Made by a program: the position numbers and the translations under genes. DNA of 64,000 nucleotides from Methylobacterium sp. Leaf117 (lineage in GTDB: Bacteria; Pseudomonadota; Alphaproteobacteria; Rhizobiales; Beijerinckiaceae): the NCBI RefSeq assembly GCF_001422985.1, contig NZ_LMNL01000012.1, positions 313,096 through 377,095 on the forward strand, read 5' to 3'. How positions within the stretch are numbered: the first letter of the stretch is position 1; every line of letters starts with the position of its first letter. Shown here piece after piece: positions 34,458 to 49,374 of the stretch. Below the pieces are notes generated by a model, which worked only from the letters and a program-made list of their open reading frames with translations, searched no databases and had not been told where the DNA came from.

Positions 34458-35340
34458 TGGCGTTGGCGGCCATCAGGCTGACGGCGCAGGCAAGGCGACC
34501 CGTTGCGACGTCAAGGCGACCGGCGCGCTCGCGGTGTAGGCCGGCCCAATGGCTGAGCCAGCCGAAGGTCCTCTCCACGACCCAGCGCCGCTCCAAGACG
34601 ACGAAGCTCTTCTGGTCCGGCAATTTCTCGACGACACGGTGGCGCATGCTATGGACGAGGCACCATTCTTGGCAGCGCTCGGCCGTGAAGGCACCGTCGA
34701 AGATGGCCAGTCGCAGGCTGGGCCACGTCTCCTTGCCATTATCGAGAGCCGGGAGCGTGTCACGATCCTGCACGTTTGCTGGCACGACGGCGAGCGCCAG
34801 CACGTGCCCTTCGGCATCGACCAATGCGACGCGTTTGCGCCCGACCAGCTTCTTGGCTCCGTCATAACCGCGTGGCCCGCGCACACCGATGCACTTGATG
34901 CTTTGTGTGTCGACGATTGCCAGCCGCGGCTCCGGTCGGCGCCCGCAACGCTGTCGTTGCCGGCGGGTCAGATTTCGCATCAGGTCCTCGAACAGGCCCT
35001 TCTCGATCCAGCGTCGGAACCAGCCGTAGACCGTACGCCAGGGTGGAAAGCCCGCTGGCAGCGCCCGCCACGCGCCGACAACCCGCAGGTGCCAAGCAAT
35101 CGCTGCCAGCACTTGGCGCGCAGGCGTCGCTCCCGGACTGTTTGGCGGATCTGCCCGCTCCACGAAGCGGGTGACCTCGTCCAAGCCTGCCTGCAGCACC
35201 ATGTCCTTCAGATGCGCCTCATGACGCGTCCGATGTCGGTCCGTCCACATCTGCACTCCACTCCGCTCCGCCAGGCGGAATTCGTGTTTGCACACGAGGC
35301 AGATGGGGACGGACGGCTCAGGGGCTCAAACAGGCTCTAA
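34415..35340. mobile_element. IS5-family insertion sequence, about 920 bp, intact
   Basis: The element runs from 34418 to 35337. Its ends are perfect 13-bp inverted repeats, GAGCCTGTTTGAG at the left and CTCAAACAGGCTC at the right. The target duplication is TAA (34415-34417 and 35338-35340), as usual for IS5-family elements. It encodes one transposase on the minus strand and interrupts the 3' end of the second ABC transporter gene. Confidence 0.92.
34441..35295 (-). CDS. IS5-family transposase
   Basis: A 284-residue DDE transposase. The catalytic residues are visible as D in LAIVDTQS, D in LAIFDGAF and E in RWVVERTFGWL. An N-terminal helical DNA-binding part precedes them. The true start may be the internal Met before WTDRHRT, 15 residues in. 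It appears intact and therefore potentially active. Confidence 0.93.
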   Translation of the reverse strand: MCKHEFRLAERSGVQMWTDRHRTRHEAHLKDMVLQAGLDEVTRFVERADPPNSPGATPARQVLAAIAWHLRVVGAWRALPAGFPPWRTVYGWFRRWIEKGLFEDLMRNLTRRQRQRCGRRPEPRLAIVDTQSIKCIGVRGPRGYDGAKKLVGRKRVALVDAEGHVLALAVVPANVQDRDTLPALDNGKETWPSLRLAIFDGAFTAERCQEWCLVHSMRHRVVEKLPDQKSFVVLERRWVVERTFGWLSHWAGLHRERAGRLDVATGRLACAVSLMAANAINNPA

Positions 35341-36285
35341 GAGTCTGTCCGGGATCATTTTGGGGTTTGGCAGAGCTTACGGATCATGAGGCGGACGGAG
35401 GCCCAGTTGAGGAAGGCCAGGGCCTTTCGGCTGTGGCATTCCCAGTCCTTGGCGAGGCGGCGGCAGCGGTTCAGCCAAGCGAAGGTTCGCTCGACGATCC
35501 AGCGTTTTGGCAGCACGGTGAAGCCCTTCGCCGTGACGGCGTCGGGCTGATCGGATCGCTTGACGATCTCGACATCGACCCGTCGGCACGCGCGACGTAG
35601 TCCGGCCTGGAAGCGCGGTCCCTGATAGCCGCCGTCGGCGTAGAGCTTGAGCAGGAACGGATAGAGGCCGAACAGGGTCGCCATCACCCACACCCCGCCG
35701 TCGCGGTCCTGCACGCCGGCCGAATGCACCAGGGCGTGCATCAGCAGACCCTGGGTGTCGACGAGGATGTGGCGCTTCTTCCCTTTGATCTTCTTGCCCG
35801 CGTCGAAGCCGGGCGGATCGATCGACGCCCCCCTTTTTCCGCGCCCTTGACGCTCTGGCTGTCGATGATCGCTGCCGTCGGGCTCGCCTCGCGTCCCGCC
35901 TGCTCCCGGCACTGCACGAACAGCGCGTGATGGATGCGCATCAGCGTACCATTGTAGTCCCACAGGTCGAAGTAGCCGTAGACCGTGCTGCGGGCCGGCA
36001 TATCCGTGGGCAAGGCCCGCCACTGACAGCCTGTGCTCAACACGTACATCAGGGCGTCCACCACGGCCCGGGTCTCGACCGTGCGCTTGTTCCCGCCCCG
36101 CTTGGCCGGCGGGATCAGCGGCGCAATCACGCCCCATTCCGCGTCCGTCAGGTCGCTCGCGTAGCGCAGCGCGCTCCGGTCATAGCGGGCTCGGTTCTCG
36201 GTCGTCCACATCAGCAAAGGCCTTTCTCAGCCCTCGCTTGGATCACAACCTGCTCAGATTGCACACCTTGTTACCGAACAGACAC
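35341..36285. mobile_element. IS5-family (IS427/IS1031-like) insertion sequence
   Basis: About 945 bp, abutting the first element. Imperfect terminal repeats match at 12 of 16 positions: left GAGTCTGTCCGGGATC, right (complement) GTGTCTGTTCGGTAAC. The flanks do not match (TAA on the left, TTA on the right), so there is no clean target duplication, which suggests recombination or deletion at one end. It carries a two-frame transposase. Confidence 0.82.
35355..36217 (-). CDS. Two-frame IS5-type transposase (probable -1 frameshift)
   Basis: The first frame (36217 down to 35741) encodes the N-terminal part (LTDAEWGVIAPLIPP, then IIDSQSVKGAEKGG with the first catalytic Asp). The second (reading to 35355) continues with GKKRHILVDTQG, the Asp in LYADGGYQG and the Glu in RWIVERTFAWLN. 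They meet at an A5G6 run near 35831-35841, where a -1 slip joins them into about 286 residues. IS427/IS1031-type elements use such programmed slippage, so this is probably functional rather than broken. Confidence 0.85.
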
Positions 36286-36341
36286 TTAGCAGCAAATGCC
36301 CATTCACCTGATCGCATTATCATTTAGGGGTTGCAGAAGCC

Positions 36342-38315
36342 GTGCCGGCGGATAGCTTGGCGCCTCCTGGAGGGATGATGGCTGCGACGGCGGGATTAGA
36401 AGCAATTGACGACGACGCTGCGGCACGGAACCGGCTTTGGACGGCGGACGCCGCAGCGCGGCTGCTGGTCGACGCCGGACCTGGCACCGGCAAGACCCAG
36501 GCTGCTGCCCGGCGAATTGTGCATCTTGTGTCGATCGGGCTATCACCCTCTCAGATCTTAGTCTTGAGCTTCTCGCGCAGCGCCGTCAGAACGTTAACTC
36601 GGCGTATGACGGCTGTAGTGGGAGTCGAAGAGCGAGTTGTCGAGGATCTGCGCCACGTCTCGGTGCGAACCTTCGACTCGTGGGCCTTTCGCATCCTCCG
36701 ACTTCTAGGCGGTCAGCCTGAGGACCTGCTGCGGCGACGTCATGACGATAACGTTGAGGCGCTGGTCGGGCTCCTGAGGGGACCATCCCGCGATGACGTG
36801 CGGCAGGTGCTTGGCGACCGGCGGCACCTTGTCGTCGACGAGTTCCAGGACTTGCCGGGCGTTCGCGGCGAGCTCGTCCTGGCGCTCATGGACCTGCTCG
36901 CCCCGCTTGGCGGTGGCGGGTGCGGCTTCACCGTCCTCGGCGATCCGGCGCAGGCCATCTACGGCTTCGCGGCCGCGGGCGACCGCGACGCGGTCAGCGC
37001 TGCCGCCTACTGGCGCCGCATCGTCGAGCGGTATGGCGACGGTATTGAGCATCTCCGTCTGACCCACAACTTCCGCTCCACGCCACCAATTGCCGCGATG
37101 TCGGCGCGGCTGCGGGCAGTGCTGACCGGCGATTTGAAAAATGAGGAAAAGCTCCGTGCCGTGCAGGAGGCGCTGGCCGCGCTGCCCAAAAGCGAAGGCT
37201 TCGACTTAGCGTCGATCACCGGTGGCGGCAGTTCGGCGGTTCTGACCCGCACCAACGGCGAGGCGCTGCGGGTGCTCACAGGATTGATGGGTAGGGAGCT
37301 TGAGGGCGCGGGCAGGCTGCGCATGCGGGCCGCGAGCTTCGCGACGCTGCCACCCGCGTGGATCGCCGGGTTGCTCCGGCGGGTTCCAACGGGGAGCGTT
37401 GCGCGGTCACAGTTCGACCGCATCCACGCCCATCTTTCTGGGGCTTGGGGACCTTCGCTGTGCGCTGAGCTCGCGCTGCCGGCTGCCGACGTGGCCTGGG
37501 GACGGATCGCTTTGGCTTCGGGGGTCGCCGCCGACGCAACATCGCTCGAACTGGCAATGCTTCGGGCGAGGCTCGGCTGGCACGACGCCTTCCCGGACGA
37601 CCAGCCGTTGCTCGAGGATGGCGTCGTCATCACGACCATCCACCAGTCCAAAGGCGCTGAGTTCGACGCGGTGACAATCCTAGAGACCGCACCCGACCGA
37701 TTGCCGGACGATGGCGACCACGCGGAAGAAGCGCATGTCGGCTACGTCGCAATGACGCGTGCCGGCAGTTCGCTTGCGCGGGCGTCCGCCGATGTCATCT
37801 ACAGGCCGCCGACCGGCTGGACCTTCCGCAACGACCGGACACGTCTCTGCTCCTGGTGGAATGGCTGGATCAACCTTGAGATGGGGCAGAATGGCGATGT
37901 CGACCCGCTGAGCTTCGTCGACCCCGCCCTGCATGGTCCGGGCGGGCCGGCGGCGTTGCAGGAATATCTCCTCGCGAACGCAGAATCCCTGGCCGGTCGT
38001 AAGGTGATACTCTGTAAGTACCTTGACGCCGACCAGCACGCGACGTGGCGTATTCACCTGCAGATCAAGGAGGGGCCGGGCATGCTGCTCGGCGCGACCA
38101 CTCCGCAGCTCACGTTCGACCTGCTGCACGTCCTGAACAAGAAAGGCTATACGCTGCCTCACCGCATCTTCAACCTCAGGATTTCTGGCGTCGGTACAAT
38201 CACGTCCGACGCCGACGCGCGCCTGGAGGTGCCGGAGAGCTCGAGTCGACTGTGGCTTGGCGTCTCGCTGTTCGGCACCGGTGACTTCCGCCCCTCGAAA
38301 TGGAAGGGCCGCTGA
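36342..38315 (+). CDS. UvrD/Rep-like superfamily 1 helicase
   Basis: A 657-residue SF1 helicase, first gene of the DISARM-like operon. Motifs in order: Walker A GPGTGKT near residue 46, Ia-like ILSFSRSAVRTL, DEFQDLPG (motif II), GDPAQAIYGFA (III), THNFRST (IV), TTIHQSKGAEFD (V) and YVAMTRA (VI). The C-terminal 180 residues carry no motif I can place and no nuclease motif. The GTG at 36342 is one choice; ATG at 36378, shortly after GGAGGG, is the alternative. Its stop overlaps the drmA start (TGATG). It lies 56 bp from the IS5 element. Confidence 0.88.
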   Translation: MPADSLAPPGGMMAATAGLEAIDDDAAARNRLWTADAAARLLVDAGPGTGKTQAAARRIVHLVSIGLSPSQILVLSFSRSAVRTLTRRMTAVVGVEERVVEDLRHVSVRTFDSWAFRILRLLGGQPEDLLRRRHDDNVEALVGLLRGPSRDDVRQVLGDRRHLVVDEFQDLPGVRGELVLALMDLLAPLGGGGCGFTVLGDPAQAIYGFAAAGDRDAVSAAAYWRRIVERYGDGIEHLRLTHNFRSTPPIAAMSARLRAVLTGDLKNEEKLRAVQEALAALPKSEGFDLASITGGGSSAVLTRTNGEALRVLTGLMGRELEGAGRLRMRAASFATLPPAWIAGLLRRVPTGSVARSQFDRIHAHLSGAWGPSLCAELALPAADVAWGRIALASGVAADATSLELAMLRARLGWHDAFPDDQPLLEDGVVITTIHQSKGAEFDAVTILETAPDRLPDDGDHAEEAHVGYVAMTRAGSSLARASADVIYRPPTGWTFRNDRTRLCSWWNGWINLEMGQNGDVDPLSFVDPALHGPGGPAALQEYLLANAESLAGRKVILCKYLDADQHATWRIHLQIKEGPGMLLGATTPQLTFDLLHVLNKKGYTLPHRIFNLRISGVGTITSDADARLEVPESSSRLWLGVSLFGTGDFRPSKWKGR

Positions 38316-41300
38316 TGGCGACCGCATCGCCCGCCGAGCTTCTGGCCAGAGCCCGCGCCGAAGTCCGGGCGGAGGTCGTCCGGCTCGCCGGCAGCCTCCT
38401 TCTAGGCCCGGTCGATGCGAATGAGCAGATCGCCTCGGCGCCGCTCGACACGTACCTCACTGGGGTGCTCTGGCCCGAGGGCCAGACCCTTTCGGCCATA
38501 GAGGATGAGGCCGAGGAGGGTGCCTCGACCACCGCTGACGGTGAGGAGGACGGATCGGTTCCCGGATACCGGTCAATGCGTCCTTGCTCGATCGGGCTCA
38601 CCTTCGCGCTGGCAGCGGACGCTGCGGCGACGATCGATCTCGGCACCACAGCGCGCTACGAGCCGGTCACTGGCGAGGCGTCCGAAGAGAACGGTCGGGC
38701 GACGCGCAAGTGGGTCCGCCGGGAGCTCGGCTATTCGGTGGCGCTGGAGTCCGGCCCGGCCGCAGTCTGGGACGTTGAAGAGTTTCGAACGGCCGCTGGT
38801 TTTGTCCGTGATGCCGCTGTCCGTCTCCACGTGCGCCGGCGCATTGCTGGCGGCCAGCAAGTTTTGACGGTGACGCTCATCAACGCGGCTGTCGAGACTG
38901 ACGACACGTCTCGCGACGCAGTTTGTCTGTTCCAGGCGCAAGTGCGGGTAGCGGGGGCCGACGGGGCGCGCGTCATCCGCCCCCGACCGATTGTCCCGCA
39001 GCCGGATGCCGATGAGGACGCCCGGTCAGCGGCTCTGCTCTACCGCGAAGTCCGCGAATACGCAGTCGGCCATGGCGTCTCGGCATCTTGGTCCGGTGTG
39101 CAGGGCGGTTGTGCCGCCTCCGTCTCGACGGAATGGATGCCGGCGACCGCGGTCAGCGGTACGAGTGCCGACGGGCACTCCAGCTTCGGCACCTTCAGGG
39201 CCGCGCACCCGCGGGCGCTGGAGGCCGCTTGGCTCTCCGACGGGGCGGCCCGTGACGAAGTCCTGCCCGTTCTGGACGCGTTCGTCGACGCCTACGAGAC
39301 GTGGATCGCGGACAGTCTGACTGCCCGTCTTCAATTCTTCGAAGGCGAACTCGCCGCCGCGGCCTTGCTGAACCGCGACAGGTGTGCCGCGGCCGCGAGC
39401 CGCATGCGCCTGGGCGTGGCGGTTCTTGCACACGACGCCGCTGCTTGGTCCGCCTTCGCACTCGCGAACGAAGCAATGGACAGGCAGTCGCGCTATACGA
39501 TTAAGGGATCGCGCGCCGCGCCGCTCCGCTGGCGCCCGTTTCAGCTGGCCTACATCTTCCTCGTGCTCCCCGGCATCGTAGACCCCAAAGCCGGGGGTGG
39601 CGGCCGCGACGTCGTCGACCTGCTCTGGTTCCCGACAGGCGGTGGCAAGACTGAAGCCTATCTTGCTCTGACCGCCTTCCAGATTTTCCTCCGTCGCCTG
39701 ACCGATGCCGGGCGGCGCGCGGACGGCGGCGTAGACGTGCTGATGCGCTACACGCTTCGGCTGCTGACCGTGCAGCAGTTCCAGCGCGCCGCGTCGCTCA
39801 TCTGTGCCTGCGACGCCCTCAGGGTCGAGCGTGGCGACCTCGGCGACGCGCCGATCTCGCTTGGCCTCTACGTAGGTCGAGACGCGACGCCCAACAGCGG
39901 CGTTGAGGCGCGGGAAGCGCTGCGCGAGGAAGTCGACGGCCTTGCGCCAAAGTCAACGCCGCGACAGTTGCTTGAATGCCCGGTCTGCGGAGTCGCCCTA
40001 TCCGCGTCCGACTACGAGACGGCGCCAGACGGCACCTCAATCGAGATCCGCTGCCGCGACGCGTCTTGTGCAACGGCCGGTCGGCCGATCCCCGTGCTGA
40101 CGGTCGACCAGCACATCTACGACGCGCCGCCGTCACTGCTGATCGGAACCATCGATAAGTTTGCGCAGCTGCCGCGCTCGGCGCGGTTGCGGCCGCTCTT
40201 CGGGCTGGACGGAGGCTCGCCACCGGGGCTTGTAATCCAGGACGAGCTACACCTTATCTCGGGTCCGCTGGGCTCAATGGCCGGCCTCTACGAGACGATC
40301 GTCGATCTGCTGTGTACGCGTGACGGCGTCCGCCCGAAGGTCATCGGCTCGACCGCGACCATCGGTCAAGCCGCCCGCCAGGTAAGGGCGCTTTTCGATC
40401 GGGAGGTGCTGCAGTTCCCGCCATCCGGGTTCGAGGCAGGCGACTCTTTCTTCGCCGTTACCGAAACCCGCGGCCCTGACCGGCTCTATGTTGGCGTCAG
40501 CTCGGCTGGCCGAAGCCCGAAGTTCGCGCTTCAGGCTGTGTCGGCGGCCCTCCTGCAGGCGACCGCGGCCGTTCGCGCAATCGGCCTGCCGTCGCCCGAG
40601 ATTGATCCGTACTGGACCGGCGTCCTCTACTTCAACAGCCTGCGCGAGTTGGGCGGTGCCTACGTCCTGTTGCAGGACGACGTCCCCCGCCAGATTGGCT
40701 TTGTTGCCGGGAGGCTCGGGCTGGTGCCCGCACGCGCCCTCGAGCATGAGCCGGTTGAATTGAGCAGCCGCGTCCCGTCCCGCGAGCTGCCGCAAAAGCT
40801 GCAGCGCCTTGGCGTCGACCTCGCCCGTTCCGAGGCAGACCCGTTTGCGCCGCCGCCCGAGGACGTTGTCCTCGCCTCGAACATGATCTCGGTCGGGGTC
40901 GACGTGCCGCGGCTGGGGCTGATGATCGTGAACGGCCAGCCGAAGTCGACGGCCGAGTACATCCAGGCGAGCAGCCGGGTGGGCCGCGGCCTCCCCGGCC
41001 TCGTCGTGACCGTTTACAACGCGGGCCGTCCGCGAGACGTCTCGCACTTCGAGCATTTTGTCGGCTATCACGCGGCGCTCTACCGCGCCGTAGAGGCGAG
41101 CAGCGTGACTCCATGGGCGCCCCGAGCGCGCGATAAGGCACTACACGCCGTCGTCGCCGCCGTGGTACGCCACCTTGTCTCTGGAATGGACGATGACGAC
41201 GATGCTATCGCCTTCGATCCCTCCGATCCGGCCACGGTCACGCTGATCGGCTTGATCGTCGCCCGCGCGTCGAGTTCATCTGGCGGCATAGAGGGTCCGG

Positions 41301-41548
41301 ACGCCGAAGCGGATATCCGCGCGATCGTTCGCGAGTGGGCGCAGCGCGGGAGCGACACGAGGGCTGCCGGGCGTCGGCTGCTCTACTGGGAACGCCGCGC
41401 GCCATTCGGCGCAACGCTGCCGCATCTGATGGCGTCAGCCGAAGAGGGCGCGCGGCAGACCGGGCTCGCGTGGCCAACGCCTAACTCGATGCGTGAGGTT
41501 GAGCCGTCGACCGCATTCAGCCTCAGAACCTTCAGAAGGACGACTTGA
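38315..41548 (+). CDS. drmA: DrmA, DISARM-type SF2 helicase
   Basis: A 1077-residue helicase. Motifs: Walker A in LLWFPTGGGKTEAYL near residue 440, DELHLISG (DExH) near 643, GSTATIG (III), and SVGVDVPRLGLMIVNGQPKST followed by QASSRVGRG (V/VI) near 875-890. A four-Cys zinc element (CPVCG ... CRDASC) is inserted near 552-590. These features, and the gene for a DUF1998 protein immediately downstream, are those of DrmA in DISARM anti-phage systems, where DrmA and DrmB form a complex that engages incoming DNA. The ATG overlaps the upstream stop by one base and has a GGAAGGG site. Confidence 0.9.
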   Translation: MATASPAELLARARAEVRAEVVRLAGSLLLGPVDANEQIASAPLDTYLTGVLWPEGQTLSAIEDEAEEGASTTADGEEDGSVPGYRSMRPCSIGLTFALAADAAATIDLGTTARYEPVTGEASEENGRATRKWVRRELGYSVALESGPAAVWDVEEFRTAAGFVRDAAVRLHVRRRIAGGQQVLTVTLINAAVETDDTSRDAVCLFQAQVRVAGADGARVIRPRPIVPQPDADEDARSAALLYREVREYAVGHGVSASWSGVQGGCAASVSTEWMPATAVSGTSADGHSSFGTFRAAHPRALEAAWLSDGAARDEVLPVLDAFVDAYETWIADSLTARLQFFEGELAAAALLNRDRCAAAASRMRLGVAVLAHDAAAWSAFALANEAMDRQSRYTIKGSRAAPLRWRPFQLAYIFLVLPGIVDPKAGGGGRDVVDLLWFPTGGGKTEAYLALTAFQIFLRRLTDAGRRADGGVDVLMRYTLRLLTVQQFQRAASLICACDALRVERGDLGDAPISLGLYVGRDATPNSGVEAREALREEVDGLAPKSTPRQLLECPVCGVALSASDYETAPDGTSIEIRCRDASCATAGRPIPVLTVDQHIYDAPPSLLIGTIDKFAQLPRSARLRPLFGLDGGSPPGLVIQDELHLISGPLGSMAGLYETIVDLLCTRDGVRPKVIGSTATIGQAARQVRALFDREVLQFPPSGFEAGDSFFAVTETRGPDRLYVGVSSAGRSPKFALQAVSAALLQATAAVRAIGLPSPEIDPYWTGVLYFNSLRELGGAYVLLQDDVPRQIGFVAGRLGLVPARALEHEPVELSSRVPSRELPQKLQRLGVDLARSEADPFAPPPEDVVLASNMISVGVDVPRLGLMIVNGQPKSTAEYIQASSRVGRGLPGLVVTVYNAGRPRDVSHFEHFVGYHAALYRAVEASSVTPWAPRARDKALHAVVAAVVRHLVSGMDDDDDAIAFDPSDPATVTLIGLIVARASSSSGGIEGPDAEADIRAIVREWAQRGSDTRAAGRRLLYWERRAPFGATLPHLMASAEEGARQTGLAWPTPNSMREVEPSTAFSLRTFRRTT

Positions 41549-43452
41549 TGGCGAGGGCTGCGAGAGGCGGCGGGACGACCGCCGGGATCGCCGATCCCGT
41601 GGAACCGGTCGGGACAGTGCGGCGGTCGCAGCTCGTGTCGACCTATGGGATCGGTGCGATCGTCGACCTCGAAAAGGGTTCCTTCATGCCGATGGGCCTG
41701 GAGGACTGGGAAATTGCCACGCGCCTACCCTCCCTCTCCATCAGCGAGCCAACGCTTGAGACCATGCTGAACGTCAGCCACCTTCGCCTAGGTCCAGTGG
41801 TGAAGGCGGTTCAAGGTGCGCGGACGGTCAGCGCCCGGACTACGATCCCTGCCGTTCGCTTCCCCGAGTGGCACGAGTGCCCGAAGTGTCATCGCATTGG
41901 GACGGAAGGGGCACCTTTCGAGCTTGCGCCCGACGGCAGTCGCCTCCTCTGCCTTGCGCATGCCGGCGCAACGGTCCACACGACGCCAGTCCGCTTCGTC
42001 GTGGCCTGCCGCCGCGGGCACGTCTCCGACTTCCCGTGGGTCTGGTGGGCACACCGCGCCCGGGAGGAAGGCTCGTGTGAAAACCCAAGCCTCTACCTCC
42101 GCTCGCACGGCCGGTCGGCCTCGCTTGCTGACCTCTACGTCGTGTGCAACTCCTGCCGTACGGGCGAACGCCAGACGTCCCAGTCGCTCGGTGGCGCCTT
42201 CGGCGGCGAGGCGCTGCGCGGCCACGCATGCGGAGGGGTGCGGCCCTGGCTCCGCGACCGCGAGGAAGGCTGCCAAGCTGTCCCGCAGGCGCTCCAGCGC
42301 GGCGCCTCTAACGTGCATTTCCCGGTCGTCTGCTCGGCATTGTCGATTCCACCGGCCTCCGAGGCTGCGATGCAGATCGTGCAGGAGCTGCGCTACATGC
42401 TCGATCCGGTCCCGGCCTCGGCGATCGCCGACGTGCTCGGCGGGGTCGCCGCACAGTACGGCATCGCAGCAGAGCCGCTGATTGTCGCGTGGCGGAACCT
42501 CAAGGAGTTGGAGAGTGGTCGCCGTGGGCAGCTGACCGAGCGGATCGCGCGGGCGGAGGAGTACGCGGCGCTGTCGGAGGACAGGGACGACCCGGTGATC
42601 GCCGGTGTCGTGCCGCAGTTCCAGAACACGGTATCGCAGCCCCCACCGGCGCTCGCGCGCTGGTTCGACCTCGTAGGCGCAGTCACCCGATTACGCGAGG
42701 TCCGCGCGATCGCCGGCTTCTCGCGCATCGAACCGCATCCGGTTGCCGCCGAGGACGTCGCGGCGGCCATCGTGCAGGGCGACGTGGCGCCACTGTCGAA
42801 GGCGCCGCGCAATTGGTTGCCAGCCGCCGAGATCCGCGGCGAGGGCGTGTTTCTCCGGTTCGACGCAACCACAATTGAAGCGTGGTTGGATGCCAACCCG
42901 GGCGTCGCGGCGCGGGCAGCGGAGATCGACGCCGTCGCCGCCGCCGCCGCCGCGCGCCGCGGCCATGCGCGCGATCACGTCGTTACGCCCCGCTTACTGC
43001 TCGTGCACAGCTTCGCCCATGCGCTCATCCGCCAGATCAGCATCGAGTGCGGCTACTCGGCGTCGGCGCTGAGGGAGCGGCTCTACGTGACCGAGCCGGA
43101 CGATGGCGTGCCAGCAACGAACGGCGTCCTGGTCTACACGGGATCTCCCGATTCTGAGGGCAGCCTCGGCGGGCTGGTCCGCCTCGCGACGCCGGAGATG
43201 CTCGGGCCCATCGTGCTCCGCACGCTGGCTGCCGCGCGCTGGTGCGGCAGCGATCCGGTTTGCATCGAGACCGAGCCGGCGCAGGCCGGGGAGCGGCTGA
43301 GCGGCGCCGCATGCCACTCCTGCCTTCTGCTACCTGAAACCGCGTGCGAGCGCTTTAACCGCGAGCTCGACCGCGCCGTGCTCGTCGGCGATACCGATGG
43401 CGAGTTCCAAGGGTTCTTCGCGGATGCGGAGGCGTCCCCTTGGCCGTCCTGA
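41548..43452 (+). CDS. drmB: DrmB, DUF1998-domain protein
   Basis: A 634-residue protein. The N-terminal half starts with VRRSQLVSTYGIGAIVDLEKGS, typical of DrmB, and contains a CPKCHRIG zinc-type element and further Cys pairs. The DUF1998 part near residues 480-600 has LLLVHSFAHALIRQIS, GYSASALRERLY, VYTGSPDSEGSLGGL and a C-terminal Cys cluster (CHSCLLLPETAC). In DISARM, DrmB partners DrmA. The start is the ATG at 41548 in a TGATG overlap with drmA. Confidence 0.92.
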   Translation: MARAARGGGTTAGIADPVEPVGTVRRSQLVSTYGIGAIVDLEKGSFMPMGLEDWEIATRLPSLSISEPTLETMLNVSHLRLGPVVKAVQGARTVSARTTIPAVRFPEWHECPKCHRIGTEGAPFELAPDGSRLLCLAHAGATVHTTPVRFVVACRRGHVSDFPWVWWAHRAREEGSCENPSLYLRSHGRSASLADLYVVCNSCRTGERQTSQSLGGAFGGEALRGHACGGVRPWLRDREEGCQAVPQALQRGASNVHFPVVCSALSIPPASEAAMQIVQELRYMLDPVPASAIADVLGGVAAQYGIAAEPLIVAWRNLKELESGRRGQLTERIARAEEYAALSEDRDDPVIAGVVPQFQNTVSQPPPALARWFDLVGAVTRLREVRAIAGFSRIEPHPVAAEDVAAAIVQGDVAPLSKAPRNWLPAAEIRGEGVFLRFDATTIEAWLDANPGVAARAAEIDAVAAAAAARRGHARDHVVTPRLLLVHSFAHALIRQISIECGYSASALRERLYVTEPDDGVPATNGVLVYTGSPDSEGSLGGLVRLATPEMLGPIVLRTLAAARWCGSDPVCIETEPAQAGERLSGAACHSCLLLPETACERFNRELDRAVLVGDTDGEFQGFFADAEASPWPS

Positions 43453-45173
43453 TCCCGGCGGTCCCGAAAGACTGCCCCGCCGGCGAGCGGGTAGTATACG
43501 AGAAGATCGGTCGCGAGCTTCCTGAAACTTGGGTAGCGCTGCACTCGCTTGGCCTTCCGCGGCACGAGCGCAAGGTCTGGGGCGAGGCGGATATCGTCCT
43601 GCTCTCGACCCACGGTGTATTCGCCCTCGAGGTGAAGGGCGGGAAGGTGTCCTGCCTCGAGGGTGAGTGGACCTACGCGGGACCCGGTTTCAAGACATAC
43701 ACCCGCAAGGAGGATCCCTGGACGCAGTCGAAGACCGCGATGATGGCGGTGCGTTCCGCGCTGCACAATGCCAATGCCGCGTTCAGGGACGTGCTGTTCG
43801 GCTACGGCGTGGTCATGCCTTTCTGCCGCTTCGACGCGCGCGGGGCTGAGATCGTGCCGGAGGTTCTGAACGACCGGTCCACATTTCGGCAGGGTATGGA
43901 CCAGTACGTCGGGCGGCTGCATCGGCACTGGGACTCCGACTATGCGCAAAAGCACGGCCGTGCTTACCGCAGCCTCACCCCTCACCAGATCCGTGAGGCG
44001 CGCCAGATCCTACGTCCGGATCTCGAGACGGCGCTCAGTCTCGGCGGATGGCTGACTGGCGTTGACGCCGAGATCCTGCAGCTGACAAACGCGCAAATCC
44101 GCATTTCGCGGCGGCTTGCCGCGAACCCGCGTTCGATCGTCACTGGGCCGGCCGGCACCGGCAAGTCGATCCTCGCACTCGACCGCGCACGCCATCTCGC
44201 CTCCAGCGGCGCGCGCGTCCTCTACCTCTGCTTCAACCGGGTTCTAGCCGGCCATGTCTCGCGTTCGCTGGAGGCGGGGGGGTTGAAGGGCGTGGAGGCG
44301 TGGCACGCGCACGGCCTCTACGGTCGCCTCGTCGCCGACGCCGGCATGGGCGGCGAGCTTGCTGCACTTAACACTGACGATCCAGCGTTCTTCGCCGAGC
44401 GGTTTCCAGAATTGGCGGCCATTGCGGCGCTGGAACTCGGGCGGGAACCCTGGGATGCGCTCGTCGTAGACGAAGCGCAGGACCTGCTGACACCGTCCCA
44501 TCTCGACACGCTGGACCTGCTCGTGCGCGACGGATTGGAGGGCGGGGTCTGGCACCTGTTTCATGATCCCAACCAGAACCTCTACGACACCGACGTCCGG
44601 CAGGCCTGCGAGATCAGGTTAGCGGGGGGCCACCCCGTCCGCGAGCTGCTGGAGGAGAACTGCCGCAACACGCGGCAGGTCGCGACGCAGGCCTCGATCA
44701 CGTCGGGGATCGACCTGCCTACGGTGGGCGCGCCGGAGGGGCCCGACTGCGACGTGACGTTCTACGGCAGCCGGGCCGATGGCTTGGCGGCGCTGGAGGC
44801 GGCTGTCGCAGAATTGCTCAAGGGCGAAGTGCGGCCTAGCGACGTCGTTGTGCTGTCCACGCGCCAGTTGGCGAACTCGCTTCTGGCGGGCGTCTCGACA
44901 ATCGCTGGCCGCGCGATCGCGGATGTTGGCAACGGTCCACCGCCGCCCGGCACTATCGCCTTCTCGACAATGCATAGCTTCAAGGGCTTGGACCGGCTCG
45001 CGGTTTTGGCCATCGACATGACAGAGATAGGGGATCCGCTGTGGTCGATGCTGCACTATGCTGGCCTGTCTCGTGCACGATGCCTGCTACGTTGCTTCGC
45101 GCCGGAGGCAGCGGCCAAGCGCTACTCCAGGCAAGCAATAGCCTGGGGGAAACGGGTTAAGCCTCCGACGTGA
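43440..45173 (+). CDS. NERD nuclease-domain / UvrD-like helicase fusion
   Basis: A 577-residue protein. Residues about 15-130 match the NERD (nuclease-related) domain: an acidic WGEADIVLL, then FALEVKGGKV with the E-x-K of the PD-(D/E)XK-like core. The rest is an SF1 helicase: Walker A GPAGTGKS near 238, VVDEAQDLL near 342, FHDPNQNLYD, ENCRNT, and TMHSFKGLDRLAVL. It occupies the position where DISARM normally has the phospholipase-D protein DrmC, so it may supply the nuclease activity (inference). The start is a TTG with a GGAGG site 7 bases upstream, giving a 13-bp overlap with drmB. Confidence 0.88.
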   Translation: MAVLIPAVPKDCPAGERVVYEKIGRELPETWVALHSLGLPRHERKVWGEADIVLLSTHGVFALEVKGGKVSCLEGEWTYAGPGFKTYTRKEDPWTQSKTAMMAVRSALHNANAAFRDVLFGYGVVMPFCRFDARGAEIVPEVLNDRSTFRQGMDQYVGRLHRHWDSDYAQKHGRAYRSLTPHQIREARQILRPDLETALSLGGWLTGVDAEILQLTNAQIRISRRLAANPRSIVTGPAGTGKSILALDRARHLASSGARVLYLCFNRVLAGHVSRSLEAGGLKGVEAWHAHGLYGRLVADAGMGGELAALNTDDPAFFAERFPELAAIAALELGREPWDALVVDEAQDLLTPSHLDTLDLLVRDGLEGGVWHLFHDPNQNLYDTDVRQACEIRLAGGHPVRELLEENCRNTRQVATQASITSGIDLPTVGAPEGPDCDVTFYGSRADGLAALEAAVAELLKGEVRPSDVVVLSTRQLANSLLAGVSTIAGRAIADVGNGPPPPGTIAFSTMHSFKGLDRLAVLAIDMTEIGDPLWSMLHYAGLSRARCLLRCFAPEAAAKRYSRQAIAWGKRVKPPT

Positions 45174-45231
45174 CATCGTTTTTTAGTGCACAATGGTGCA
45201 TTGTGATGTATCGTTTCAGGTAGGAGGAGCC

Positions 45232-45414
45232 GTGCCAAATCCCTGTAACAGCGTGACGACGTCGGTGATGCTTCCGGACCGCATGTACCAGAAAGTCGCG
45301 GCGCTGGCCGCCGCGAACGACGTTTCAACCGCATGGGTCATCCCGCAGGCAGTGGTCCGCTACCTCCCCGAGCGGCGCGGCCAGAGCGAGCTGCCATTCG
45401 GCGTCGGCGAGTGA
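45232..45414 (+). CDS. Small putative DNA-binding protein (RHH-like)
   Basis: A 60-residue protein starting at a GTG with an AGGAGGA site. The segment TTSVMLPDRMYQKVAALAAANDVSTAWVIPQAVVRYL has the beta-strand/helix/helix spacing of ribbon-helix-helix (CopG/Arc-like) proteins. Its stop overlaps the methyltransferase start (GTGA). It may regulate the operon or assist the methyltransferase. Assignment rests on pattern only. The 58-bp gap before it is the only real spacer between genes of the operon, and its AT-rich sequence (45174-45222) could hold an internal promoter. Confidence 0.6.
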   Translation: MPNPCNSVTTSVMLPDRMYQKVAALAAANDVSTAWVIPQAVVRYLPERRGQSELPFGVGE

Positions 45415-46919
45415 CGGCCAACGCGCGAGTCGTTGCCGCCAAGGCAGCTAGGCTCCGGGCGGGCGGAAGGCCGCGTGTCCTCGACCTCTTTTCCGGCTGC
45501 GGGGGGCTATCGCTCGGCTTCGAGGCAGCCGGCTGTGATATAGCCGCGGCGGTCGAATTCGATCCGGACGCCGCACGATCTCACGGCATGAACTTCCATG
45601 GCGGGCATGCACGCCATTGTGTTGCGCGGGACATCACAGCGACAGCCCCCCAAGCGTTGACATCGGAACTCGGCCTGGGTGCAGCCGACGCCGCGTTTGA
45701 CGTGCTCGTAGGGGGGCCTCCGTGCCAAGCCTTTGCGCGAGTCGGCCGATCAAAGCTGCGCGAGGTGGCGGAGCACCCAGAGGCGTTCCGGCACGATCCA
45801 CGCGCTCGACTCTACATTGAATACCTACGCTACGTTGACGCGTGCGCGCCGCTCGCGGTCGTTATCGAGAATGTACCCGACATGCTCAATCACGGCGGAC
45901 ACAATCTGGCCGCCGAAATTGGCGAAACCTTGGCGCTCCGGGGTTACGTCGTCCGCTATACGCTCCTGAACGCTGCCTTCTACGGCGTGCCGCAAATGCG
46001 CGAGCGGATGATACTCGTCGCGATTCGGACGGAGGTGGCCGAAGATGTCGACCTGCCTGAACCGACGCACTGGATCGACCTTCCTTCAGGCTATTTGGGA
46101 TCGCGCGCGGTCGCGCTGAAGCTCGCGCAGACCAGAGGCGTGGATCCGTGCGTCCGCTATGTTGCCGCGCCTGAGCCAGCGCGCGCGCTGCCCCGCGCTG
46201 TGACCGCGGAAGAGGCGATCGGTGACCTGCCAGAACTGCGGGCGCAAGAGATGCTCGCTGCTGGTACGCTCAGGCGGGGAGCACGCCGCTTCGACGTCGC
46301 TATCCCGTGGGGCGGACACAACCGCCAAAGTCCCTACGTACGGTTGATGCGTGGCTGGGCGGGTCACGAAGGCGGACCATCGGTGGACGACCACGTGATT
46401 CGCTACCTTCCCCGCGACTACCGCATCTTCGCCGGACTTAAGCCGGGCGATCAGTATCCCGAGGCGCACCGCTACGCGCTGGCGCTGCTCGGCGAGGAAC
46501 TGAATAGGCTCGCTGCCGACGGACAGCCGGTTGCGGACGGGTCGCCGGAGTTGGCCGCGCTCCGCGCGGCGTTCGTACCGCCCTACGACGACGGCAAGTT
46601 TCCGAACAAGTGGCGCAAGATGGAGGCCGATGCGCCGGCTCGCACACTGCTCGCGCACCTCGGCAAAGACGGGTACAGCCACATCCATTACGACGACGTG
46701 CAGGCGAGGCCAATCTCGGTGCGCGAGGCCGCCCGGCTCCAGTCCTTCCCAGACGGCTTTCGCTTTTCGGGCACGATGAACCCCGCTTTCCGGCAGATCG
46801 GCAACGCGGTACCACCTCTCCTTGCGAAGGCCGTCGCCGCAGTGCTCGTTCCCCAACTGCGGGGTCGCCGAACGGGCGACTCCGAAATGCCTCTGTTCGC
46901 GTTTGGAGGACGCCGGTGA
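45411..46919 (+). CDS. DNA (cytosine-5) methyltransferase
   Basis: A 502-residue C5-cytosine methyltransferase. Motif I DLFSGCGGLSLGFEAAG, motif IV with the catalytic Cys in GGPPCQAF, motif VI VVIENV, motif VIII QMRERMILV and motif X FRQIGNAVPP are all present; a target-recognition region lies between VIII and X. Class 2 DISARM systems carry a 5mC methyltransferase that marks host DNA as self. It is translationally coupled on both sides by GTGA overlaps, and a Vsr gene follows. The recognition site is unknown. Confidence 0.94.
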   Translation: MTANARVVAAKAARLRAGGRPRVLDLFSGCGGLSLGFEAAGCDIAAAVEFDPDAARSHGMNFHGGHARHCVARDITATAPQALTSELGLGAADAAFDVLVGGPPCQAFARVGRSKLREVAEHPEAFRHDPRARLYIEYLRYVDACAPLAVVIENVPDMLNHGGHNLAAEIGETLALRGYVVRYTLLNAAFYGVPQMRERMILVAIRTEVAEDVDLPEPTHWIDLPSGYLGSRAVALKLAQTRGVDPCVRYVAAPEPARALPRAVTAEEAIGDLPELRAQEMLAAGTLRRGARRFDVAIPWGGHNRQSPYVRLMRGWAGHEGGPSVDDHVIRYLPRDYRIFAGLKPGDQYPEAHRYALALLGEELNRLAADGQPVADGSPELAALRAAFVPPYDDGKFPNKWRKMEADAPARTLLAHLGKDGYSHIHYDDVQARPISVREAARLQSFPDGFRFSGTMNPAFRQIGNAVPPLLAKAVAAVLVPQLRGRRTGDSEMPLFAFGGRR

Positions 46920-47512
46920 CCGGGACGCGCCGCGATGTGATCCTGATCCGCTCCCTTGCGGATTCAGATCTCGGGCTGTTTTCATCCCATCGCGCCAGCG
47001 CGACGAGCAAGCAGCGCGCGATCGCCATTACCAGCCCCGCGGCGCGCATGCTATTGAGCCCAAGACTTCACGTAGCTAAGGGCACGGAGTTCGACTTCAT
47101 CTGCGTGTACGGAGCGGCCGCTACACGAGAGCTGCGCCACGTCAGTAAGGTCGGCAAGAACTGGCGGCTTGGTGGACGCAAGCTCGCCGGCAGCGAGTTC
47201 GCTTTCCTTGACAGCCGAGACTTCGCGTTGGTCAGGTCGGTGCGAAATAACGACGGCGACTCACCCATGATGATGACGTTTGTGGGTAGGCAGCGCGAAC
47301 GGCTCGTCCACGCCGGCATCGTTGCGATGGTCGGTGAGCGGCTGCGGGATGGGGTCGCGGTCGTGCCGGAGGGCAGCGATGCGTTCGAGGCGCTGGCGTC
47401 CGCCTTTCCGTGCGTGCCTGCGATTTTCGCCCTCGGTCCGCCGTACGCACCTGAAAGTGAGGACGGAGGGAAGTCGCTGCTGCTGTCCGCCGTAGCCGCG
47501 GATGGCAGATAG
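46916..47512 (+). CDS. Unknown protein between methyltransferase and Vsr
   Basis: A 198-residue soluble protein; I do not recognise a family. Notable conserved-looking elements are FDFICVYGAAATRELRH, a basic KVGKNWRLGGRKL stretch, FLDSRDFALVRSVRNND and FVGRQRERLVHAGI. The basic charge suits nucleic-acid binding; no metal or nuclease motif is clear. The GTG start overlaps the methyltransferase stop, and its own end overlaps the Vsr start by 11 bp, so it belongs to the same functional unit, possibly as a restriction or specificity subunit. Confidence 0.8.
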   Translation: MTGTRRDVILIRSLADSDLGLFSSHRASATSKQRAIAITSPAARMLLSPRLHVAKGTEFDFICVYGAAATRELRHVSKVGKNWRLGGRKLAGSEFAFLDSRDFALVRSVRNNDGDSPMMMTFVGRQRERLVHAGIVAMVGERLRDGVAVVPEGSDAFEALASAFPCVPAIFALGPPYAPESEDGGKSLLLSAVAADGR

Positions 47513-47969
47513 GCTGACGCCGGAGCAGCGCCGGCTCAACATGAGCCGCGTTCGGGCGAAGGACACCGGTCCCGAGATGGCAGTACGCCGCCTGCTCCAT
47601 CATGCGGGATATAGGTACCGGCTGCATTCCCGAGAGCTGCCTGGCCGGCCTGATCTGGTCCTGCCACGATACCGGACAGTCGTTTTCGTGCATGGTTGCT
47701 TCTGGCATGGCCATGGATGCTCACTCTTTAAAGTGCCGACAACCCGCACGGAGTTCTGGACCGCCAAGATCGACGCGAACAAGCGCCGGGACGAAGCAGC
47801 GGTGGTTGCGCTGGCCACTGCGGGATGGCGCAGCCTCTGGGTATGGGAGTGCGCGCTACGCGGACGCGGCCGCCGGTCGCCAGAGGCCTTGCGGGACGGG
47901 ATTGTCGCGTTCATCAACGGCGAGACAGGCTTCCAAGCTATCGGCCAGGCTGAAGTGCCGTCCCGATGA
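47502..47969 (+). CDS. vsr: Vsr very-short-patch repair endonuclease
   Basis: A 155-residue Vsr-family nuclease. Visible family motifs: MSRVRAKDTGPE, then the catalytic core with the Asp in GRPDLVLP, and VFVHGCFWHGHGC with zinc-binding His/Cys, and a WVWEC segment near the C-terminus. Vsr nicks T:G mismatches produced by deamination of 5-methylcytosine and normally accompanies a 5mC methyltransferase, as here. It is not a standard DISARM component. An IS3 remnant starts just after the stop. Confidence 0.93.
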   Translation: MADRLTPEQRRLNMSRVRAKDTGPEMAVRRLLHHAGYRYRLHSRELPGRPDLVLPRYRTVVFVHGCFWHGHGCSLFKVPTTRTEFWTAKIDANKRRDEAAVVALATAGWRSLWVWECALRGRGRRSPEALRDGIVAFINGETGFQAIGQAEVPSR

Positions 47970-47970
47970 A

Positions 47971-48520
47971 ACCGGGCCTGTCACGGTTGGGTGGCGCTGA
48001 AGGTGGCGCGGCGCATCAACAGCCTCGGTGTGATCGAGGCGCTGGCCGACGCGATGTGCCTGCACGGCATCCCGGAGAACATCCGCTGCGACAACGGTCC
48101 AAGCTACGTCGCCAGCGACCTGGCTGACTGGCTCGGCATTCGAGGCATGACCCACATCCGCGGCGCGCCATGCCATCCGCAAACGCAGGGCAAGATCGAG
48201 CGTTGGCATCAGACGCTCAAGAACCGCATCCTGCTCGAACACGCCTACTTGCCCGGCGAGATGGAGACGCAGGTTGCCGACTTCGTCGAACACTACAACC
48301 ATGCCCGAGCCCATGAGAGCCTGAGCAACCTCACACCCGCCGACGTCTACTTCGGACGCGGCGAAGGGATCCTGGCCGAGCGGGAACGCATCAAGCGCCA
48401 GACCCTGATGGATCGCCGCTTGCGCCATCACGCGCAGGTTGCCTAACCTCTCACCCCAGATGGACCAGAGCCTGCGCTCCTGAACACCGCTGTATGTCCC
48501 AAATCATCTGACGACGGACA
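47971..48520 (+). mobile_element. IS3-family remnant, 3' part only
   Basis: The left end is missing; the sequence begins in mid-transposase directly after vsr and runs to a probable IS terminus at gacgacggaca (48510-48520). It marks the right edge of the DISARM-like block and shows that DNA has been deleted or exchanged here. Confidence 0.7.
47991..48446 (+). pseudogene. IS3-family transposase OrfB, C-terminal fragment
   Basis: About 150 residues of an rve integrase core: DNGPSYVASDLADWL with the second catalytic Asp, HPQTQGKIERWHQTLK with the catalytic Glu, and ADFVEHYNHARAHESL. The N-terminal half and the first catalytic Asp are absent, so it cannot be active. It is not the missing half of the IS3 fragment at 60.9-61.6 kb, whose subgroup differs. 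Confidence 0.85.
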
Positions 48521-48702: not shown

Positions 48703-49374
48703 ATGCGTGGGATAAGAAAAATCATCCAAACCGCACAACAAGGCGGCCTAGACGCGCAAAGCACTTATTCCAGATGGTCAAACGGGATGGGAATATCGTA
48801 CTCGGGAGTAGAAGCCTTTGTGTCAGTCAAGATTGCGGAAAAGATACACCTTGAATTGAACGACACAAAGAAGCTTTTTGTGACTCTAGAGTATCCAGTT
48901 CAAGCTCTAATTAATAATGCAGAGAAAAAATTCAGAGGGCGCAAGCCAAGACGGTTGAGTGCCAATGGCCGTGTTGATGTAACAGTCTGGGATAAAGATG
49001 ACTATCCCCGAGTTATCATCGAAGTCAAGAGGCATTTAAAGTGGCAGAGTTTAGAGGACGACATAGACAGAATTAGTCTGTTTATGAAGCGTTACGGGAC
49101 GCAAAATGAAGGATCATTAGCTGCCGGACTAATGATTGTTCCGTTCGTGACTTGGCAGAAACTGGGTCGGGAGAAGATCCATACCCATGAACAAACCATC
49201 TTAGAAATTGCGGAAAACGCGGGTAAGTACGGCTTTACTCGTGAAAGAGAAATCTATCAGGACATTCAAGACGATGATCCGTTCAAGAATTTAAGAGATG
49301 AGGATGGAGATCCAACGTATGTTCATCATCAGTATGGCTGCATGTGTTTAACACTTCTACCGAACGCTTGCTAA
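48703..49374 (+). CDS. Low-GC protein with PD-(D/E)XK-like nuclease motif
   Basis: A 223-residue protein coded by AT-rich DNA unlike its neighbours. Residues 90-110 read RVDVTVW...RVIIEVKRH, placing D92, E107 and K109 in the PD-(D/E)XK nuclease pattern. A short charged N-terminus precedes it; the C-terminal part is acidic, with a His-rich end (YVHHQYGCMC). An AAAGGGA ribosome site lies upstream. I do not recognise a named family. Composition and position between a transposon remnant and restriction-type genes suggest a horizontally acquired defence nuclease. Confidence 0.65.
   Translation: MRGIRKIIQTAQQGGLDAQSTYSRWSNGMGISYSGVEAFVSVKIAEKIHLELNDTKKLFVTLEYPVQALINNAEKKFRGRKPRRLSANGRVDVTVWDKDDYPRVIIEVKRHLKWQSLEDDIDRISLFMKRYGTQNEGSLAAGLMIVPFVTWQKLGREKIHTHEQTILEIAENAGKYGFTREREIYQDIQDDDPFKNLRDEDGDPTYVHHQYGCMCLTLLPNAC

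What the first reader, a model, noticed from the sequence alone, without database searches (positions are those of the whole stretch)
36342..47969. DISARM-like operon without DrmC: UvrD - DrmA - DrmB - NERD-helicase - RHH - 5mC methyltransferase - unknown - Vsr
DrmA (FPTGGGKTEAYL, DELHLISG) and DrmB (DUF1998) are the defining DISARM pair and a 5mC methyltransferase matches class 2. However, no phospholipase-D DrmC or class-specific DrmD/DrmE is visible. In their place are a UvrD-like helicase, a NERD nuclease-helicase fusion and a Vsr nuclease. The eight genes are co-oriented and nearly all overlap, so this looks like one complete, different system rather than a decayed DISARM.
Basis: partly seen in the sequence, partly recalled or inferred. 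Interest (0 to 1): 0.87.

Follow-up and report, generated by a model that had tools for sequence, protein, structure and literature searches.

The report
DISARM-like helicase cassette with NERD nuclease
A bacterial gene cluster pairs the core of the DISARM phage-defence machine with its own helicase and nuclease-helicase, plus an exchangeable DNA-marking module; it looks like a distinct, recurring variant of a known defence system that may show which nuclease such systems use.

Summary
Eight co-oriented genes lie at 36342-47969: UvrD-like helicase, DrmA, DrmB, NERD nuclease-helicase, RHH, 5mC methyltransferase, unknown X, Vsr; no DrmC, DrmD or DrmE. It is not decayed DISARM: ten loci share the order UvrD-DrmA-DrmB-NERD, their DrmA proteins form one fully supported clade apart from class 1 DISARM, and none matches a DrmC profile. 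But the eight genes are not one fixed system. They are a four-gene core plus a separable RHH-MTase-X-Vsr module, which occurs without DrmAB on rhizobial plasmids and has McrB-McrC-like genes in X's place in the sister locus. The window's MTase is closer to the rhizobial copies (73%) than to the sister's (62%). The NERD slot was filled by two NERD lineages (AU p 0.0003). Likely mechanism: DrmAB senses foreign DNA, the SF1 helicases and NERD nuclease process it, 5mC marks self; sensing is by homology, the rest inferred. Missing DrmC alone is weak evidence: it is published as dispensable and often absent. New variant of a known kind.

The parts
36342..38315 (+). UvrD/GajB-like SF1 helicase, 657 aa by the longest GTG frame (an ATG shortly inside is also possible)
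   Evidence: A-G-P-G-x-G-K-T (45-52) and D-E-x-Q-D (166-170) are invariant, x excepted, in 8 of 8 aligned homologues
38300..41548 (+). DrmA, SF2 YprA-family helicase, 1082 aa
   Evidence: PDB 7s9v chain A 5.2e-153; FPTGGGKTEAYL 444-455 invariant in 8 of 8; V1067 aligns with Serratia V1296
41545..43452 (+). DrmB, DUF1998/MZB zinc protein, 635 aa
   Evidence: PDB 7s9v chain B 3.5e-80
43440..45173 (+). NERD nuclease domain fused to SF1 helicase, 577 aa
   Evidence: PF08378 above its cut-off; G48, E49, D51, E64-G68, K242 and D344-E345-x-Q347-D348 invariant in 8 of 8 aligned
45174..45231 (.). 58-bp gap between the two halves, with a ribosome-binding-like AGGAGGAG just before the inferred RHH start
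   Evidence: sequence printed; no sigma-70 type match in 36000-48500
45232..45414 (+). RHH (CopG-like) small protein, 60 aa; start inferred
   Evidence: weak PHROG matches; homologues annotated CopG before the same MTase family in L016, L032, L033
45411..46919 (+). C5 cytosine methyltransferase (about 502 aa; start inferred from the GTGA overlap; longest frame starts at 45333)
   Evidence: PF00145 4.3e-54, TIGR00675 3.5e-50
46916..47512 (+). X, unknown protein, about 198 aa (start inferred from the GTGA overlap)
   Evidence: no Pfam/NCBIfam/PADLOC/PDB match; four-member family aligned
47502..47969 (+). Vsr-type mismatch endonuclease, 155 aa
   Evidence: TIGR00632 6.2e-45, PF03852 1.8e-32

Best explanation
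The locus is a DISARM-related phage-defence cassette of its own DrmA clade, with the core UvrD - DrmA - DrmB - NERD nuclease/helicase. A separately mobile 5mC module (RHH - methyltransferase - X - Vsr) has been joined behind it. Proposed working: (1) DrmAB loads on foreign DNA with exposed 5' single strands and starts to translocate (reported for Serratia DrmAB; here by homology). (2) The UvrD-like helicase and the NERD nuclease-helicase act on the opened DNA and degrade it, the role DrmC or host nucleases are assumed to play elsewhere (inferred). (3) The methyltransferase marks host DNA with 5mC, which dampens DrmAB through the base-contacting valine V1067 (conservation shown; function here inferred). 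(4) Vsr repairs T:G mismatches from deaminated 5mC (recalled role), and X stands where other loci carry an McrB-McrC-like pair, so it is probably the restriction or specificity part of a LlaJI-like R-M module (inferred). RHH is probably the module's regulator (inferred).
For: Ten loci with the strict order UvrD-DrmA-DrmB-NERD. Their DrmA is one clade: 8 of 8 then known, 100/100 in a 35-row IQ-TREE; 10 of 10, FastTree 1.0, in 41 rows. Class 1 DISARM is a separate clade (100/99; 0.991). No DrmC match in 10 of 10. Catalytic and ATPase motifs of UvrD, NERD and DrmA kept in 8 of 8 aligned (L069 and L070 were not in it). V1067 aligns with Serratia V1296 in SMREVE and is invariant in 8 of 8. Codon positions 1 and 2 differ less than position 3 between window and L002 in all six genes compared (DrmB 0.26/0.22/0.50), as expected under selection on the protein. 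NERD next to DrmAB recurs, P about 1e-7. The module is exchangeable: X module without DrmAB in L032 and L033; McrB-McrC-like pair in X's place in L002, L016 and L053; MTase 73% to L032/L033 against 62% to L002, while DrmA is closest to L002 (63%). LlaJI shows that an McrB/McrC-like pair beside 5mC MTases can restrict unmethylated DNA (PMC1459862, abstract).
Against: I know of no phage assay for any of these loci. The ten NERD proteins are not one clade (AU p 0.0003), and in the best UvrD tree the ten are not one clade either, though a single origin is not rejected (AU p 0.35; 4% of bootstrap trees have it). DrmA falls under NCBIfam's DrmAS cut-off (so does the class-2-like DrmA of L061, 861 bits). 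Coupling between core and methylation module is not shown: L014, L044 and L070 have no MTase match in the stretch seen (the stretches reach 0.5 to 6.6 kb beyond the core). The tree join of the window's MTase with L032/L033 has only 90/92 support. X has no fold or function (AF2 pLDDT 34). UvrD-DrmA-DrmB also occurs outside the clade (L017).
Confidence: 0.6

Rival explanations
1. Two independent defence systems that happen to sit side by side: a complete UvrD-DrmA-DrmB-NERD system and a complete R-M system (RHH-MTase-X-Vsr), without functional coupling.
For: The module is found without DrmAB in S. meliloti GR4 and R. etli. Its affinity differs from the core's. A 58-bp gap separates the halves. 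Three of ten core loci show no MTase in the stretch seen.
Against: An MTase and a Vsr frame lie beside the core in 6 of 10 core loci, on either side (the Vsr of L035 is in short pieces), and an MTase-McrBC-Vsr version lies beside a different DrmAB cassette in Deinococcus (L053). DISARM normally includes a methyltransferase, and DrmAB activity is methylation-sensitive (PMC9142583, passages).
Confidence: 0.3
2. A DNA-repair cassette (YprA-type helicase, UvrD and nuclease, comparable to MrfAB) rather than phage defence.
For: YprA-family helicases include repair enzymes such as MrfAB (PMC12458937, section 3). UvrD and Vsr are repair families.
Against: The only strong PDB matches of DrmA and DrmB are DISARM chains. 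DrmA matches are rare (9 of 385 class genomes). Four of the ten loci come from plasmid records (a collection I searched on purpose), some beside transposases; the window has further restriction-like genes downstream.
Confidence: 0.06
3. A decayed or truncated DISARM that lost DrmC and other parts.
For: DrmC, DrmD and DrmE are absent; a DrmA/DrmB neighbour with a shortened DrmA beside IS66 genes exists (L064).
Against: Ten loci with the same four-gene order in one DrmA clade, open frames (except drmB of L035, in two pieces) and kept active sites.
Confidence: 0.02
4. A member of ARMADA, TALON, BRIGADE, Druantia or Dpd.
For: Shares parts: a Vsr nuclease (ARMADA, fused), a NERD nuclease (TALON), a GajB-like helicase (ARMADA II) (PMC12458937).
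Against: Here helicase and DUF1998 are separate genes as in DISARM; no fused Vsr, BrxHII, PglX, TBP or TPR-CSD gene was matched in the operon; DrmA scores far above DpdJ.
Confidence: 0.02

Closest known systems
DISARM (classes 1 and 2; DrmAB core)
   Same: DrmA plus a separate adjacent DrmB; a DNA methyltransferase nearby, cytosine type as DrmMII; Serratia DrmAB is the only strong PDB match.
   Different: No DrmC, DrmD, DrmMI or DrmE; UvrD-like and NERD-helicase genes flank DrmAB; DrmA is a separate clade from class 1.
ARMADA type II
   Same: YprA-type helicase, GajB-like helicase, Vsr-type nuclease and a methyltransferase in one cluster (PMC12458937).
   Different: In ARMADA the Vsr is fused to the YprA helicase, with a PglX-like MTase and BrxHII-like helicase; here Vsr is a separate protein beside a 5mC MTase.
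LlaJI-type restriction-modification (5mC MTases with McrB/McrC-like R1/R2)
   Same: The sister locus L002 and L016 carry MTase-McrB-McrC-Vsr.
   Different: LlaJI has two MTases; the window has X in place of the McrB/McrC-like pair.
MORC/paraMORC R-M systems (Iyer 2008, PMC2292703, passages)
   Same: The RHH-MTase-X-Vsr module lies divergently beside ATP-binding, Z1, PD-(D/E)XK and AIPR genes in L032 and L033; methylase and Vsr genes are frequent in MORC neighbourhoods.
   Different: That engine has an ATP-binding protein and Z1 protein in place of DrmAB. That the ATP-binding gene is MORC-like was not tested.
DISARM-like operons with ShdA (Shield paper, PMC10270631, passages)
   Same: Also DISARM-like operons with an extra nuclease-type partner (about 70 ShdA homologues).
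   Different: The partner is ShdA (RmuC domain), not NERD or UvrD; NERD and UvrD do not occur in that text.

Membership tests
DISARM | DrmA helicase | tested here: met
   PADLOC DrmA 3e-210; 7s9v chain A 5.2e-153; but NCBIfam DrmAS 907 bits, under the 950 cut-off
DISARM | DrmB as a separate adjacent gene | tested here: met
   NCBIfam DrmB_fam 487 bits against cut-off 240; 7s9v chain B 3.5e-80
DISARM | DrmC phospholipase-D nuclease (reported as dispensable and often missing) | tested here: not met
   No match to a DrmC profile (five sequences from loci here, all class 1 type) in the window stretch or 9 relatives; genome-wide only a weak match, E 2.3e-4, 26%, in a 554-aa frame on another contig. 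A very divergent DrmC could be missed.
DISARM class 1 | DrmD SNF2 helicase and DrmMI adenine methyltransferase | tested here: not met
   No match in window 28001-56000 or among its operon proteins; a SNF2 gene resembling DpdE/DrmD, far under both cut-offs where scored (L015), lies divergently in five relatives
DISARM class 2 | DrmE and DrmMII | tested here: not met
   No DrmE match (PADLOC) or (query: one protein of L061, called DrmE only by its position). The MTase matches DrmMII 3.4e-70 but a general type II MTase profile better, so the DrmMII part is inconclusive.
DISARM (function) | Broad phage protection | not testable with these tools
   needs a phage assay
ARMADA | YprA helicase with DUF1998 and Vsr in one protein, plus BrxHII and PglX | tested here: not met
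   DrmA, DrmB and Vsr are separate; no BrxHII or PglX match among the operon proteins
TALON | ARMADA-like YprA with TPR-CSD and TBP genes and a NERD nuclease | tested here: not met
   Only the NERD part is present, fused to an SF1 helicase
LlaJI-like R-M | 5mC MTase with McrB/McrC-like restriction pair | tested here: not met
   MTase present, McrB/McrC-like genes absent in the window; present in L002, L016 and L053

The most novel reading that the evidence does not exclude
A further branch of DISARM in which DrmAB has a dedicated nuclease-helicase partner in the operon (NERD-SF1), a slot filled at least twice by different NERD lineages, plus a UvrD motor. Its self/non-self mark comes from a plug-in 5mC module shared among unrelated restriction engines (DrmAB, McrBC-like, Z1/AIPR). 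X would be a new type of restriction or adaptor protein able to stand in for the whole McrB-McrC pair.
Probability: 0.35. Interest if true: 0.78.

Novelty: new variant of a known kind. Interest (0 to 1): 0.6.

Why it matters
How DISARM recruits a nuclease is described in print as unresolved ('it has remained a mystery', PMC9142583, passage). This clade encodes a candidate in a fixed place beside DrmAB, and two NERD lineages have taken that place, which suggests a real functional need. The exchangeable 5mC module gives a natural experiment on how such systems are told what is self. [quoted passage not shown]

Tried and rejected
X structure: AlphaFold2 without an alignment gave mean pLDDT 34; no fold search was run. 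UvrD (window plus L002, alignment A2) gave pLDDT 37; no fold search either, so its C-terminal part (about 500-657, invariant E513, G515, D519 in 8 of 8) remains unassigned. X in viral contigs: no relative. X in 385 class genomes: only the window's own. X in plasmids: 5 records, 3 opened. X against PDB: none. DrmA in 50,697 phage records: no match at 1e-10. Promoter scan: no sigma-70 match; 4 terminator-like sites against 6.9 in shuffles. Repeats: nothing tied to the operon.

Idea 'X is a remnant of McrB or McrC': no similarity found. Idea 'failing the NCBIfam DrmAS cut-off marks the clade as non-DISARM': rejected, since a class-2-like DrmA also fails it. Idea 'the four-gene core is one inherited unit': rejected for NERD, not rejected for UvrD (AU p 0.35); DrmB was not tested by a tree of its own.

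Rows dropped or not opened: L064 (shortened DrmA) and L043 (fragment) were left out of the DrmA trees; G545 (483-aa frame) and near-duplicate plasmids were not fetched; of 79 plasmid records with a DrmA match, 18 were opened. L071 starts at a contig edge, so a UvrD upstream cannot be judged. In one search, 10 core loci, 9 NERD-DrmAB loci of other types and 4 loci without DrmAB were used. Annotation of loci used profiles built from these same loci, so it shows family membership within this set; the SNF2/DrmD, DrmE and GajB labels are by best profile or position.
Full report
WHAT IS THERE. Profile searches identify a UvrD/GajB-like SF1 helicase, DrmA, DrmB, a NERD nuclease domain fused to an SF1 helicase, a C5 methyltransferase and Vsr. 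The RHH gene is supported weakly by profiles and by homologous genes annotated CopG in front of the same methyltransferase family elsewhere. X matches nothing curated or solved. DrmA and DrmB each have one PDB match at E <= 0.001, the two chains of Serratia DrmAB, 7s9v.

GENE SPACING. Within each half the genes overlap, given the inferred starts. Between NERD (stop 45173) and RHH (likely start 45232) lie 58 bp with a ribosome-binding-like stretch. So the operon reads as two blocks: UvrD-DrmA-DrmB-NERD and RHH-MTase-X-Vsr.

RELATIVES. The samples overlap and their E-value limits differ (1e-20, 1e-60, 1e-100). Ten loci carry UvrD-DrmA-DrmB-NERD in this order: the window, L002 (Sphingomonas BK345), L014 (Azospirillum), L015 (Rhizobium ruizarguesonis), L016 (R. 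rhizogenes), L021 (Shinella), L035, L044, L069 and L070. In L035 drmB appears in two frames with a stretch between them.

DrmA PHYLOGENY. In a 35-row IQ-TREE the eight such loci then known form one clade (100/100), and 13 class 1 DISARM loci form another (100/99). With six rows added, FastTree keeps ten of ten together (1.0) and class 1 together (0.991). The rest includes a class-2-like locus (L061), loci with NERD-DrmA-DrmB, and loci with DrmA-DrmB-GajB-like helicase. L017 (Tsukamurella) has UvrD-DrmA-DrmB followed by SNF2 and an Eco57I-type methylase and lies outside the clade, so the UvrD-DrmA neighbourhood alone does not define it.

DrmC. A profile from five DrmC-like genes finds nothing in the ten loci even at E 10, and a DrmC query finds only a weak match in a longer frame elsewhere in the window's genome. 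But 8 of the 13 class 1 loci here lack a match too, and the literature says DrmC is dispensable and often missing (PMC9142583, passages). DrmC absence is thus consistent with a different system but does not prove it; the conserved order and the clade are the better evidence.

NERD. In one sample of 385 genomes, DrmA (9) and NERD-helicase (8) coincide in 5, against 0.19 expected. Active-site and ATPase residues are invariant in 8 of 8 aligned. The ten NERD proteins are, however, not one clade: those of the window and L002 group with NERDs of nine DrmAB loci of other types (99/98.6), and holding the ten together is rejected (AU p 0.0003). The same place in the operon has been filled by two NERD lineages. 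This goes against a fixed inherited unit but speaks for a repeated need for a NERD-helicase beside DrmAB. For UvrD the best tree does not join the ten either, but a single origin is not rejected (AU p 0.35; 4% of bootstrap trees).

THE METHYLATION MODULE. RHH-MTase-X-Vsr occurs without DrmAB on S. meliloti GR4 and R. etli plasmids, divergent from ATP-binding, Z1, PD-(D/E)XK and AIPR genes; L034 has X-Vsr with only a short MTase frame. In L002, L016 and Deinococcus L053 the place of X is held by an AAA protein and a DUF2357 protein (with PD-(D/E)XK in L002 and L016), an McrB-McrC-like pair. The window's MTase is 73% identical to those of L032/L033 and 62% to L002, and X is found in L032-L034, whereas the window's DrmA is closest to L002 (63%; 45-49% to the seven other core loci then known). 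The join in the MTase tree has only modest support (90/92). The simplest reading is that core and module have separate histories. LlaJI (PMC1459862, abstract) shows an McrB/McrC-like pair with 5mC MTases restricting unmethylated DNA.

COMPANIONS. Five of the ten loci (L014, L015, L044, L069, L070), all in one DrmA subgroup of the tree, have a divergent SNF2 helicase (DpdE/DrmD-like) next to a roughly 1000-aa protein (1275 aa by the longest frame in L014); the copies of L015, L070 and L014 gave no accepted Pfam match. Six of ten have an MTase and a Vsr frame nearby (window, L002, L016, L021, L035, L069). The MTases of L021 and L069 are of another kind (L021 37% identical to the window's; L069 277 bits against about 800), and the Vsr of L035 is in short pieces.

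MECHANISM. Serratia DrmAB prefers DNA with 5' single-stranded ends and is limited by methylation, with V1296 proposed as the sensor (PMC9142583, passages). The window's V1067 aligns with V1296 and is invariant in 8 of 8. I infer that DrmAB is the sensor, that UvrD and NERD-helicase process and cut the DNA, and that the 5mC module marks self. Vsr goes with the MTase and probably repairs deaminated 5mC, its known role (recalled). Coupling between the halves is not shown, and two uncoupled neighbours remain the main rival.

NOVELTY. Searches for DISARM with Vsr, NERD, UvrD, DUF1998, 'DISARM-like' and class 3 terms (lists capped at 20, 15, 15, 20 and 12) showed no paper that, from titles, abstract starts and the passages I read, describes this cassette; most subscription papers, the original DISARM paper among those I did not read, are outside what I saw. 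Bell et al. 2025 (PMC12458937; abstract, sections 3, 5, 7, 8, 9, 26 and passages) mention many uncharacterized DISARM-like classes; their supplements were not read. Bell et al. 2024 (PMC11090510, passages) mention a DISARM-like system associated with McrBC, which may include such loci. The Shield paper (PMC10270631, passages) reports ShdA in DISARM-like operons. I therefore rate it a new variant of a known kind.

Noticed in passing
window 49471-52433 (-): A second restriction-like pair: REase-ARP family PD-(D/E)XK protein (PF22558) and a GmrSD_N protein (PF03235).
   Followed up: no
window 48703-49374 (+): Protein with a weak HSDR_N-like match (PF13588, 0.0013, under its cut-off), possibly another restriction remnant.
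   Followed up: no
window 47991-48446 and 34406-36137: Integrase-core (rve) transposase frame directly after Vsr; IS5-type transposase at 35355-36137 (-) upstream, and a 25-nt inverted repeat 34406-34430/35325-35349 that may bound a related element. The cassette seems flanked by insertion-sequence material.
   Followed up: partly
L015 1553-7446; L014, L044, L069, L070, L055: A SNF2 helicase (DpdE/DrmD-like) plus a roughly 1000-aa unassigned protein, divergent from five of the ten core loci and also near a NERD-helicase in Leisingera L055.
   Followed up: partly
L018, L019, L036, L045, L053, L063, L072, L073, L074: DrmA-DrmB followed by a small GajB-like SF1 helicase; three further proteins of 483-614 aa tested beside such loci (L019, L053, L072) have no Pfam match: another DISARM-like arrangement.
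   Followed up: partly
L037, L039, L040, L047, L052, L053: NERD-helicase directly upstream of DrmA-DrmB: a second NERD-containing DISARM-like arrangement, also in Rhodococcus (L052) and Deinococcus (L053).
   Followed up: partly
L017 6687-22411: Tsukamurella plasmid: RelA/SpoT-domain protein, UvrD, DrmA, DrmB, SNF2-type helicase and a 1571-aa Eco57I-type methylase in a row.
   Followed up: no
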